Assembly: GCA_903832665.1 (NCBI GenBank) | Contig: CAILCG010000026.1 | Coordinates: forward strand, 62,001-126,000 | Length of the DNA: 64,000 nt | Reading direction: 5' to 3' | Source of the DNA: an uncultured Methanomicrobiales archaeon | Lineage (GTDB): Archaea > Halobacteriota > Methanomicrobia > Methanomicrobiales > Methanospirillaceae | In this document: piece by piece, positions 6,630 to 37,535 of the stretch | Numbering within the stretch: the first letter of the stretch is position 1 | How the letters are laid out: each line of letters starts with the position of its first letter | Program-made: the position numbers and the translations under genes | Notes under the pieces: model-generated | What the model was told of the DNA's origin: nothing | The model's database searches: none | Seen by the model: only the letters and a program-made list of their open reading frames with translations

Positions 6630-7355
6630 TCAGACCGTCATGTTCCGGAATACCCGTACGCAGACCACGAGTACGATTCCCCCCACCACAAAGAGCAGCC
6701 CCATCTGGAGCAGGGGAACTTGCCCCGTACCGACCGATCTGATTGCATCGATGGCAAAACTGAGCGGATTCACCAGGGCGACGTCACGCATCCATGAGGG
6801 CATCACACTGTAAGGCATGAGTGCGCTCGAGGTGAAGAAGAGCGGCATCGAGATGAGGGTATTTACCGCGGCGTAGGTGTCATGGTCATCGATATACAGG
6901 GCCAGGGTGGTAGCAAGTCCCGACAGAAGCACCCCGAAGAGAATCAGGATCAGGTAGATCATACCATACTGAAAAGGGGAAAGGATCGTTGCCCCGATAA
7001 GGATCGCGATGAGCAGGATCACCGTAGCCTGGATGACCCCCCGGATGGTAATGAACAGGATCTTGCCGAAAAGGATATCCTCGCGGGGCGACGGCAGGGC
7101 AAGGAACTTGTTCAGGAATCCGAGCACCTTGTCAAACATCAGCAGCGATCCACCCTGCAGGGAAGACGCAAGCATGGTCATCACGAGAATACCAGGCGTG
7201 ATGAAGTCCAGATAATTGCCGGTGAATTTGACCGGCAGGGCAAGGCCGACAAAGATGAGCCAGGCGGCAGGCATCACGAGCAGGGTGATGACGGCTACTT
7301 TACCCCGGGCCCATTTCACCAGGTCGCGTTCCATGTAATACCATATGCCCTTCAT
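6630..7355 (-). CDS. ABC-2 type transporter permease
   Basis: This 241-residue membrane protein has about six helices and the ABC-2 layout, including the conserved region LVNPLSFAIDAIRSVGTG before the last helix. It pairs with the ATPase gene just upstream, and its ATG overlaps that gene's TAA by one base (TAATG), so translation is coupled. This family exports drugs, lipids or polysaccharides; nothing here indicates the substrate. It is likely a homodimer in the cytoplasmic membrane. Confidence 0.88.
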   Translation of the reverse strand: MKGIWYYMERDLVKWARGKVAVITLLVMPAAWLIFVGLALPVKFTGNYLDFITPGILVMTMLASSLQGGSLLMFDKVLGFLNKFLALPSPREDILFGKILFITIRGVIQATVILLIAILIGATILSPFQYGMIYLILILFGVLLSGLATTLALYIDDHDTYAAVNTLISMPLFFTSSALMPYSVMPSWMRDVALVNPLSFAIDAIRSVGTGQVPLLQMGLLFVVGGIVLVVCVRVFRNMTV

Positions 7356-8308
7356 TACCGCCTCCGGAGCATGACCCTGAATTGCTTGTCGTTGAACGAT
7401 CGGGGCTCATCGCTGCTCCCCACCACATTGAGGAATACATCGTCAAGGGTGGGCTCGTGCAGCGAGAGTGAGTGGACTTTCATGCCCAGGGCGGACAAGG
7501 ATTCTGCAATAAGCGGCAGCGCTTCGCGGCCGTTCTCAGCGGTGAACGTGACTTCATTCTCTTTCCTTCCCAGGTAACGGATGCCGCTCAGTTCCACAGG
7601 AGAATATTCGCCGGAAATAATTGCCGTGATGACATCTTTCATCAGCTGTGCCTTAAGCGCCTTTGGTTCACCGATTGCCCGAATGCTGCCACGGCTGATG
7701 ATCGCCACACGGTCACAGTACTTGTCTGCCTCATCCATGTAGTGAGTCGTCACAAAGATTGTCATGCCCCGGCCGCGGAGTTCCTGGATATGCTCCCAGA
7801 TCTTCTTTCGTGCCGCAACATCAAGACCGAGAGTCGGTTCATCGAGAAAGAGCACCGCGGGGTTGTGCACGAGCGCCTGGGCCAGTTCGAGCCTGCGCCG
7901 CATACCCCCCGAATAGGTCTTCACCAGATCGTCTGCCCGGTCGGCAAGCTCCATGATCTCAAGGGCCTCCTCTGCCTGTCTGCGGGGATCAGGGACCCCA
8001 TAGAGTTTGGCAAAGAAGATCACATTCTCCCGGCCGGTCAGGCGGATATCGACGGCCATATCCTGCGGAACATAACTGAGGTGCTTGCGGACTTTCTCTC
8101 CTTCAGTGGCACAATCGTACCCATGGACCGTTGCAGTACCTTCGGTCGGGCGAAGCAGGGTGGTGAGCATCAGCACCGTAGTTGTTTTACCCGAACCATT
8201 GGGACCAAGAAGTGCGAAGATCTCGTTGTCGACCGAGAGGGTGAGGTGATCGATAGCACAAAGATCCCCATAATATTTTGTCAGGTCATGTGTCTCGATT
8301 GCGGTCAT
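7355..8308 (-). CDS. DrrA-like ABC transporter ATPase
   Basis: From the ATG at 8308 this is a 317-residue ABC-2 exporter ATPase. Motifs: Walker A LLGPNGSGKTT, signature YSGGMRRRLELAQAL, Walker B AVLFLDEPTLGLD, and H-loop IFVTTHYMDEADKYCDR. The C-terminal 90 residues form the DrrA-type accessory domain ending SLHEPTLDDVFLNVVG. An upstream in-frame start at 8362 exists, but the ATG at 8308 is preceded by GGGGGAT and begins MTAIETHDLTKYYGD, the usual family N-terminus. It forms an operon with the permease gene downstream. Confidence 0.92.
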   Translation of the reverse strand: MTAIETHDLTKYYGDLCAIDHLTLSVDNEIFALLGPNGSGKTTTVLMLTTLLRPTEGTATVHGYDCATEGEKVRKHLSYVPQDMAVDIRLTGRENVIFFAKLYGVPDPRRQAEEALEIMELADRADDLVKTYSGGMRRRLELAQALVHNPAVLFLDEPTLGLDVAARKKIWEHIQELRGRGMTIFVTTHYMDEADKYCDRVAIISRGSIRAIGEPKALKAQLMKDVITAIISGEYSPVELSGIRYLGRKENEVTFTAENGREALPLIAESLSALGMKVHSLSLHEPTLDDVFLNVVGSSDEPRSFNDKQFRVMLRRR

Positions 8309-8448
8309 AGGATCCCCCGGTAATGACAAGGCCTGACTTTCCAGAAGTGAGTTCCCCGTCAACAGGATTCTTTACCGGAAATCTCTTTTTTGGCTGAATA
8401 ACGTTATGGGTTCGGGCAAAGGCATACCAACCGGTTTTACTGCCGGAT

Positions 8449-8800
8449 GGGACCCTGCCACCCCCTCCTCCAAAAAATGAGGAGACCGGGTTACCCATGC
8501 CTCCACGGGAAAAAGATTTAACCCAACCCTCCCCTTTCAGCACAAGCGGGGACCCTACCCCCCGCTTGCTCCATAAACCTAGCCATAATTTTGATTGGAT
8601 CCACGACGGAGGGAAATCCAGCGGCTGGCTAAAATGGGCAGAGGGGTAGGGTCCCCCAAGTAACCGGAAGGGACCCTGCCCACCCTCCCCACAAAAAAAT
8701 GAGTGACCCTAGCTACCCATACCCCCACGGAAAAAAGATTTGACCCCCACCCACCCATCCTGGCAGGGGGGTTACCCACCCCCAACACGCAACCGGAATA
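8449..8800. repeat. Tandem C-run/G-run hairpin repeats (locus A)
   Basis: The gap between the ABC operon and nikR holds no credible gene. Two imperfect copies of an 80-base unit lie at about 8449-8530 and 8670-8750. Both run GGGACCCTGCC, C-rich block, AAAAAATGAG, TACCCAT, CCACGG, AAAAAGATTT, ACCC. Between and after them are hairpins made of a C run and a G run, for example AGCGGGG...CCCCCCGCT at 8544-8566. Related material occurs at about 36.3-36.6 kb and 61.0-61.2 kb. Confidence 0.7.
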
Positions 8801-8858: not shown

Positions 8859-9281
8859 TTACTCATCCACAGTTATCGTGGTGAGTTTGACCGACTCCAC
8901 ACCCTTCTGGGACATGAGCCGCTCAGCGAACAGCTTGAGGTCAGCCCCGTCGCCGTGAACAAGAATCACTTCAAGGCACCGGTTATGGGTGACATGCGAG
9001 TGCAGCGATGCCTTGATCAGTTTGTGGTAATCGTGCTGGATATCGGTGAGAGTGACGAGCAGCCCCCGCTGGTCGTGATCGTATACCATCGTGATGACTC
9101 CTTCCCGTTCACCCTTGACATCCGACATCCATTTGTAATAGGTGATGTAGGTACGGATTGCATCGCGGATACCCTCTGACCGGGACGAGTACCCCCGCTG
9201 GTTGATAATCTCATCAAACTTGTCGAGCAGATTGCTGGGAAGCGATATTCCGATGCGGGAGAGATCAGAGTCCATGGTCAT
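8859..9281 (-). CDS. nikR: NikR nickel-responsive transcriptional regulator
   Basis: This 140-residue protein has the NikR layout: an N-terminal ribbon-helix-helix DNA-binding domain (residues 8-50, RIGISLPSNLLDKFDEII and GYSSRSEGIRDAIR) and a C-terminal ACT-like tetramerisation domain. The nickel ligands are in place: a His in HDYHKL, then LHSHVTHNRCLE, giving the two His and the Cys of the high-affinity site. GAGGT lies six bases upstream of the ATG at 9281, which supports this start over the internal Met3. It is divergent from nikMN-nikO-nikQ and should repress that operon when nickel is sufficient. Confidence 0.95.
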   Translation of the reverse strand: MTMDSDLSRIGISLPSNLLDKFDEIINQRGYSSRSEGIRDAIRTYITYYKWMSDVKGEREGVITMVYDHDQRGLLVTLTDIQHDYHKLIKASLHSHVTHNRCLEVILVHGDGADLKLFAERLMSQKGVESVKLTTITVDE

Positions 9282-36279: not shown

Positions 36280-36600
36280 TGTGAAAATCCTAGAGAACGA
36301 TAGCTCGCCAACACAAACCTCATTCCAAAAGGGGGGGTACCCTGTCTTGCACAAGACAAGGGGGGTAGGGTACCCCCTCTCGTATGTTCGAGTGGGGGGA
36401 TCCCCCCCTTCCCGGCTCGGACCAGATACCGGGTTTTCAGACGTGATTCCACGGGAAGCGAGGGTTATGCAGATGCCGGAAAGGGGGGGTGGTACCCCCT
36501 CTTGTCCGGGACAGGGGGGAGGGGGACCCCCTCTCACTTTGTGGAGTGGGGGTGGGTAGGGTACCATACCCCCACTCGTACTTTGGAGAGGGGGGTCCAC
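36280..36600. repeat. Array of C-run/G-run hairpins (locus B)
   Basis: The 733-base gap 36096-36828 contains at least five adjacent hairpins built from a C run, a short arm, and a G run. Examples: CCCCCTCTCG-loop-CGAGTGGGGG near 36374-36397, CCCCCTCTTGTCC-loop-CAGGGGGGAGGGGG near 36497-36522, and CCCCCTCTCAC-TTT-GTGGAGTGGGGG near 36529-36552. The G runs of four or more could also form quadruplexes. Open frames across it encode only Gly/Pro-rich low-complexity peptide. The rest of the gap shows no gene. Confidence 0.7.
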
Positions 36601-36828
36601 TTAGTATAGATGTGGTGGCTCGGTTCGCGCACTATAGTATAGATAAATCCCCGATCTAAGAAGGTTTGTTGGGTGGGATAGGTGCCCGTGAGTTTGGGGG
36701 TAGCCATGGGGAGCACAGCGGGGTCATGGCCGGAATCGCAGGACATATTACCTGAGAAAATCTAGCCAAAGAATGACAGGATTTTATCCATAGGAAATTA
36801 TATCATCCCTCAAAGGATCTTAAGAACC

Positions 36829-37338: not shown

Positions 37339-37501
37339 TGGGTCCGGGATTCATTGAAGTCACATCGTTGGTTGACGGGATATCCCGTTCTTTTTTTTTT
37401 AGAGTGGGCAGGGCCTTAAATTAGATTGCACTACGCTGGACAGCACATAAACATTGATCTCATCAAAAGGATCATTGGCATGATAGAATACTAAGAGGGT
37501 A

Positions 37502-37535
37502 CCCCGCCTCAGGGCATCTCAGACACACGGCGGGG
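37502..37535 (+). repeat. 34-nt CCCCGCC...GGCGGGG element, copy 1
   Basis: CCCCGCCTC, a short loop, then CACGGCGGGG form a hairpin with a 7-bp GC stem. The same 34-nt element, differing by only a few bases, lies at 61167-61200. Both are preceded by AGGGT. The rest of 37339-37703 shows no gene. Confidence 0.7.

What the first reader, a model, noticed from the sequence alone, without database searches (positions are those of the whole stretch)
36280..36600. Dense array of long C-run/G-run hairpins
At least five hairpins with C5 and G5-7 runs are packed in 320 bases. The arms differ (TCTCG, TCTTGTCC, TCTCAC) but the C5/G5 edges are fixed. This is not a CRISPR, REP or BIME form I know. It might be a family of mobile hairpins, quadruplex sites or terminators.
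Basis: partly seen in the sequence, partly recalled or inferred. Interest (0 to 1): 0.65.

Follow-up and report, generated by a model that had tools for sequence, protein, structure and literature searches.

The report
Archaeal mosaic hairpin-array repeats
The cluster of C-run/G-run hairpins is one copy of an apparently undescribed, fast-changing family of modular intergenic DNA repeats, found across one genus of methane-producing archaea, that looks like small mobile or recombining hairpin DNA without the enzyme known to move such repeats in bacteria.

Summary
13 runs of C5+ or G5+ lie in 321 nt (0.7 expected); it is the densest spot in the window. It is one copy of a dispersed family.

Each array strings ~34-nt C-run/G-run hairpin modules around a ~75-nt 'core' spacer (motif GCTTCGCATGGAGTCACG, minus strand here). 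Core pairs lie about 156, 189 or 222 nt apart, in one-module steps. The own genome holds about 13 cores, including a second array in the window (8444-8784). Three related species have 11-37 model hits and other members of the genus fewer. Outside the genus only four genomes gave one weak hit each.

At one gene end the array is 457 nt, ~537 nt, a ~45-nt remnant or absent in four species. Arrays at shared sites usually resemble arrays elsewhere more than each other. So the family turns over at DNA level.

CRISPR, Rfam RNAs and four-run quadruplexes were not found in this array. Position does not fit terminators. No GTAG tag or Y1 transposase was found, so it is not a RAYT-type REP. Core and arms show little or no RNA-like covariation.

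Best reading: a BIME/GC-cluster-like mosaic palindromic repeat, non-autonomous; its moving enzyme and host role are unknown.

The parts
36325..36605 (-). the whole hairpin array (given on the strand of the conserved core)
36340..36365 (.). hairpin module 1, CCCTGTCTTGCACAAGACAAGGGGGG
36373..36399 (.). hairpin module 2, CCCCCTCTCGTATGTTCGAGTGGGGGG
36394..36408 (.). palindrome joining module 2 to the core, GGGGGGATCCCCCCC
36409..36482 (-). core spacer; conserved motif at 36442-36459 (minus strand GCTTCCCGTGGAATCACG); model R1 match 36373-36506, E 6.8e-23
36495..36519 (.). hairpin module 3, CCCCCTCTTGTCCGGGACAGGGGGG
36527..36552 (.). hairpin module 4, CCCCCTCTCACTTTGTGGAGTGGGGG
36569..36595 (.). 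hairpin module 5, CCCCCACTCGTACTTTGGAGAGGGGGG
8444..8784 (+). second, more diverged array of the same family in the window; core match 8550-8671, E 5e-11

Best explanation
A mosaic interspersed palindromic repeat family of archaeal DNA: arrays of ~34-nt C-run/G-run hairpin modules built around one or more copies of a ~75-nt conserved core, in intergenic gaps. Shown: dispersed copies in this genome and in many species of the genus; quantised spacing; shared sites with different content; sizes from full array to small remnant to absence at one site; no Rfam family, GTAG tag or Y1 transposase. Inferred: it spreads and turns over as DNA, because the C/G-run stems act as short homologies and as hairpins in single-stranded DNA (recombination, template switching or gene conversion between arrays, gaining and losing modules), possibly helped by an unidentified trans-acting enzyme that reads the core. 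Any host role (nucleoid or topology site, insulation of neighbouring genes) is unproven.
For: Dispersed copies: own genome; relatives, with reversed-pattern controls at or near 0 in the carriers. Modular build: centre-to-centre spacing of neighbouring hairpins peaks at 34 nt, 74 of 104 within 28-38, and core pairs lie 156, 189-190 or 222-224 nt apart (about 190 also in G016 and G003). Dispersal: the window array is 84% identical over 239 nt to one in G034 whose flanking genes did not match; the C22 array of this genome is 93% identical over 199 nt to a G034 array at another site, while the G034 ortholog of its own flank has no array. Size polymorphism at that gene end: 457 nt (G000), about 537 (G007), about 45-nt remnant (G021), none (G034). 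Turnover: of five shared sites with usable array hits only L119/L114 are each other's best hit. Arms largely interchangeable: native stems only 0.5 kcal/mol better than chimeras.
Against: No target-site duplication and no autonomous parent was found. Several sites are shared between species, which fits long residence as well as mobility, and gene conversion could replace transposition altogether. The core is conserved in sequence over 41 copies and partly in more distant species, which may mean a host function that selection keeps. Arms do pair slightly better than chimeras (z -2.8).
Confidence: 0.6

Rival explanations
1. A host-functional chromosomal site: the core is a binding site for a chromatin, topoisomerase or segregation protein and the hairpins set spacing or supercoiling, as E. 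coli BIMEs bind gyrase and IHF. Copies stay at set positions because they work there.
For: A sequence-conserved core without conserved structure, quantised spacing, and sites shared between species with both flanks conserved (L040/L108/L117, L103/L116, L119/L114). An array with a related-looking core at the same site in the more distant G029.
Against: G034 lacks the array at a site that G000 and G007 share, and G021 keeps only a remnant there. Copy number varies from 0 to 37 model hits within one genus. No candidate protein was identified.
Confidence: 0.2
2. A large structured non-coding RNA or cis-regulatory RNA, transcribed from the array.
For: Very stable folds on either strand; A-rich loops predominate on the core strand (109 against 36); core orientation is coherent within arrays.
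Against: RNAalifold finds no consensus pair in 41 aligned cores; arm positions do not covary beyond shuffles (with register ambiguity) and native stems barely beat chimeras; no Rfam match; array content is exchanged between sites.
Confidence: 0.1
3. Transcription terminators or 3'-end stabilisers in tandem.
For: Roughly half of 24 arrays lie between convergent genes by mechanical ORF calls.
Against: This array lies between divergent genes, about 230 nt from either start; others are in tandem or divergent gaps.
Confidence: 0.05
4. Non-autonomous elements moved by a Y1 (HUH) single-strand transposase, as REPs are by RAYT.
For: Imperfect hairpins in arrays with an interspersed motif; mosaic, intergenic, clade-specific; an inverted repeat GGGGGGTGGTACCCTGTC bounds many modules.
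Against: No Y1_Tnp domain in any of the four main carriers, although the same search finds it in other members of the genus and in control genomes. No GTAG next to any of 161 hairpins. The mispair beside the C-run, suggestive in a filtered set, is not significant in the unbiased set.
Confidence: 0.05

Closest known systems
REP/BIME elements of bacteria (RAYT/TnpAREP associated; PMC2817692, PMC8266576)
   Same: Short imperfect palindromes in intergenic mosaics with conserved motifs between them; many copies; rapid turnover; clade-specific.
   Different: No GTAG tag; no Y1 transposase found in carriers; loops mostly A-rich on the core strand rather than strict alternation of orientation; modules are C5-7/G5-7 edged; archaeal.
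Repetitive potential-quadruplex/GC-hairpin sequences of Methanomicrobiaceae (rPQS; PMC8044849)
   Same: Same archaeal order (order name from L100); interspersed intergenic G-run plus C-run sequences that fold into GC hairpins; about half in tail-to-tail gaps.
   Different: rPQS is a single ~43-nt unit with four G-runs followed by a C-rich tract; the array here has no four-run G motif, and has A-rich loops, a 75-nt core and many hairpins per array. rPQS-like strings were not found in the fetched loci. The paper does not mention Methanoregula.
GC clusters of yeast mitochondrial DNA (GC42 etc.; PMC4478555)
   Same: GC-rich palindromes, intergenic, that merge and shuffle into larger composites and differ between strains at the same site.
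   Different: Different domain of life; short flanking duplications (AG or ACT) were reported there and were not shown here.
MITEs
   Same: Small, non-coding, dispersed, with an inverted repeat at the module edges.
   Different: No target-site duplication or parent transposon found; tandem mosaics of hairpins rather than one unit.

Membership tests
REP/BIME (RAYT type) | Imperfect palindromes, intergenic, many copies in mosaic arrays with motifs between the palindromes | tested here: met
REP/BIME (RAYT type) | GTAG-type tetranucleotide 5' of the stem | tested here: not met
   0 of 161 hairpins with GTAG immediately 5' or CTAC immediately 3'
REP/BIME (RAYT type) | Cognate Y1 (RAYT) transposase in the genome | tested here: not met
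   PF01797 absent from G000, G034, G021, G007; found in G001, G004, G008, G011, G017 and in controls; G007 is only 70% complete
REP/BIME (RAYT type) | Alternating orientation of palindromes | tested here: inconclusive
   A-rich loop on the core strand in 109 and T-rich in 36 of 161 hairpins: orientation is biased, but loop composition is only a proxy
MITE | Terminal inverted repeats | tested here: met
   GGGGGGTGGTACCCTGTC and its complement bound many modules
MITE | Target-site duplication at empty/filled site pairs | tested here: inconclusive
   one-sided boundary in G001 against G034; no two-sided clean empty site
CRISPR | Near-identical direct repeats with unique spacers of similar length | tested here: not met
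   repeat family D1 is 68-78% identical with spacing 122, 32, 42; no Rfam CRISPR hit at the gathering threshold
Intrinsic-type terminators | Position at 3' ends of genes | tested here: not met
   the window array lies between divergent genes
G-quadruplex repeat (rPQS) | Four G3+ runs with loops of 1-7 | tested here: not met
   none in 36280-36600 on either strand; one in the second array (8674, minus)
Structured ncRNA | Conserved, covarying secondary structure | tested here: not met
   0 consensus pairs in 41 cores; arms nearly uncoupled
Structured ncRNA | Transcription | not testable with these tools
   no RNA-seq available
Yeast mtDNA GC-cluster type (works like) | Shuffling of palindromic modules; size polymorphism at one site | tested here: met

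The most novel reading that the evidence does not exclude
A new type of archaeal modular repeat in which a sequence-conserved 75-nt core plus hairpins laid out in a ~34-nt module is copied and reassembled between chromosomal sites by an enzyme unrelated to RAYT, or serves as a host-built architectural site with a defined pitch (cores about 156, 189 or 222 nt apart).
Probability: 0.25. Interest if true: 0.75.

Novelty: new variant of a known kind. Interest (0 to 1): 0.48.

Why it matters
REP/BIME-like mosaics are understood in bacteria through their Y1 transposase. Here a genus of archaea carries an equally modular, fast-evolving system in which that enzyme was not found, with a conserved core and quantised spacing. 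It gives a clean test of whether such mosaics need a transposase or can arise from hairpin-driven recombination alone, and a candidate for a new enzyme or a chromosome-architecture site in methanogens.

Tried and rejected
Simple CCCCCTCT..GGGGG counting: it mixes this family with an unrelated repeat (GTGACCCCCTCTCTCCCCCAGAGGGGG...), so it was dropped as a copy count. Rfam with permissive thresholds: only chance-level matches far below gathering scores. Viral contigs: no exact copy of the module edge. A REP-like conserved A.A/T.T mispair next to the C-run looked strong in a filtered regex set but was not significant in the unbiased set. RNA consensus structure of the core: none. Looking for an autonomous parent in the array-rich stretch G034 C1:703500-717500: ORFs were listed but not tested against families. 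Clean empty sites with duplications: not obtained. The first core search of relatives with 3 mismatches is noisy outside the four main carriers; the sequence model R1 replaced it.

Full report
WHAT WAS CLAIMED. At least five hairpins with C5 and G5-7 edges in 36280-36600. The sequence bears this out. There are 13 runs of C5+ or G5+ in 321 nt against 0.69 expected from the rest of the window; the next densest stretch has 7. The strand folds far better than dinucleotide shuffles, as DNA (z -5.5) and as RNA of the other strand (z -5.0). A single loose C5..G5 pattern is not rare in the window (7 against 5.3 expected), so the clustering is the signal.

ANATOMY. The array (36325-36605) holds hairpin modules at 36340-36365, 36373-36399, 36495-36519, 36527-36552 and 36569-36595. 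A 74-nt spacer, 36409-36482, splits them into two groups. On the minus strand that spacer carries GCTTCCCGTGGAATCACG. Searched with the consensus GCTTCGCATGGAGTCACG, the own genome gives 10 places and the reversed control none. Those examined lie in similar arrays, except that C26:14792 was not confirmed as one.

FAMILY. A search of the own genome with the whole array gives 25 matching places, many of them real arrays when read. Forty-one cores from four genomes align. A sequence-only model of them (R1) gives 16 hits in this genome, about 13 distinct cores once overlapping antisense hits are removed. It gives 37 in G034, 14 in G021, 11 in G007 (these counts also include some antisense overlaps), 10 in G016, 10 in G037, 8 in G003, 7 in G008, and fewer or none elsewhere in the genus. 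In 199 genomes of the order only four outside the genus match, once each (best E 3e-7); the best of these, L226 in another genus of the family, does look like an array when read. The module edge GGGGGGTGGTACCCTGTC is likewise concentrated in the same four carriers. The order is Methanomicrobiales by the title of L100, a contig of the same length as G007 C95. That the genus is Methanoregula is my guess from genome sizes and was not tested.

LAYOUT RULE. Neighbouring hairpins lie 34 nt apart centre to centre in the commonest case (74 of 104 within 28-38). Core pairs lie 156, 189-190 or 222-224 nt apart, that is, in steps of about one module; one pair is at 134. Pairs at about 190 also occur in G016 (once as three cores in a row), and at 185 in G003. 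Both cores of a pair have the same orientation in the arrays read.

TURNOVER. Comparing flanks and arrays separately, several sites are shared between species (L040/L108/L117, L023/L115, L103/L116, L104/L144/L037, L041/L109/L134/L171, L119/L114, L024/L148, L045/L107). Of the five shared sites with usable array hits (L023/L115, L103/L116, L108/L117, L024/L148, L119/L114) only L119/L114 are each other's best match. The window array is 84% identical over 239 nt to one in G034, although neither flanking gene matched there. The L023 array is 93% identical over 199 nt to a G034 array elsewhere, while the G034 ortholog of the L023 gene end has none. At that gene end the array is 457 nt in G000, about 537 in G007, a remnant of about 45 nt in G021, and absent in G034. 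Downstream of another gene, four species have arrays, and G001 has a homologous flank up to the boundary and then no array. At a third site the more distant G029 has an array of different sequence with a related-looking core.

STRUCTURE VERSUS SEQUENCE. RNAalifold finds no consensus pair in the aligned cores. Variable arm positions pair no better than shuffled ones, though register shifts along the G-runs blur this test. Native stems beat chimeras of 5' and 3' halves by only 0.5 kcal/mol (z -2.8). So the runs and a small set of arm types recur, largely interchangeably. A conserved mispair next to the C-run, suggestive in a filtered set, is not significant in the unbiased set.

GENE CONTEXT. 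The window array lies between divergent genes: a multi-PAS histidine kinase and a small lipoprotein-like ORF without a Pfam match. Over 24 arrays, mechanical ORF calls put roughly half between convergent genes and the rest in tandem or divergent gaps. That resembles the distribution reported for Methanomicrobiaceae rPQS (about half tail-to-tail, 39% head-to-tail, 11% head-to-head; PMC8044849) and does not fit a terminator role.

KNOWN KINDS. REP/BIME elements are marked by GTAG-type tags and a Y1 transposase (PMC2817692, PMC8266576). None of 161 hairpins has GTAG next to the stem, and PF01797 is absent from all four main carriers while found in relatives and controls. It is therefore not filed as a REP, although it works like a BIME. 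Rfam gives nothing. No four-run quadruplex motif lies in this array. The nearest described archaeal sequences are the rPQS hairpins, a single ~43-nt unit of different build. The closest analogy in behaviour is the merging and shuffling GC clusters of yeast mitochondria (PMC4478555). No description of this family was found in the paper searches, which cover open-access papers only.

VERDICT. A genus-wide mosaic palindromic repeat family with a conserved core and a quantised layout. Shown: the family, the layout, dispersal and size change. Inferred: that the spread and turnover act at DNA level through hairpins and short run homologies, perhaps with an unidentified enzyme. Not shown: target-site duplication, transcription, any host role.

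Noticed in passing
window 8444-8784: A second, more diverged array of the same family, between an ABC transporter ATPase (7355-8362, -) and a NikR-type regulator (8859-9281, -).
   Followed up: partly
L005, L006, L008, L009, L011-L014, L017, L019-L021 (own genome): Another dispersed repeat: GTGACCCCCTCTCTCCCCCAGAGGGGGAGGCATCCCAAGGGGAGCACCCCCTTGACCCCCATTTCGGAAGTTCTTG..., about 20 copies, unrelated to the finding but caught by the same CCCCCTCT pattern.
   Followed up: no
window about 37480-37535; also in L047 and L105 flanks: Dispersed hairpin TACTAAGAGGGTACCCCGCCTCAGGGCATCTCAGACACACGGCGGGG, with similar copies in a second species; the flank comparison links several copies.
   Followed up: no
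L025:850-1150 and L026:850-1150 (own genome): Two copies of a different element: a C7/G5 hairpin followed by TTTTGTCACATGTACATGTGATTAAC.CATGTACATG..., a series of ACATGTACATGT palindromes.
   Followed up: no
L110, L129, L136, L171 flanks: Repeat of the type AACGCCGCCGC..CGAAGGGGCGCCCC.GCGGCGG next to arrays in several species.
   Followed up: no
L202 about 1190-1280 (G037): An array follows closely on what looks like a tRNA gene (read by eye, not run through a tRNA finder).
   Followed up: no
L246 upstream of 1500 (G024): Repeats of the type CAGACCCTGATT / TTTTCATCGCGATCACGATCG occupy the intergenic site where other species have hairpin arrays.
   Followed up: no
L113 and L044 against L108, L111, L112, L116: One hairpin type occurs in both orientations, CCCCTCATGTGCCCGGAGGGG and its reverse complement CCCCTCCGGGCACATGAGGGG, which suggests flipping of single modules.
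   Followed up: no
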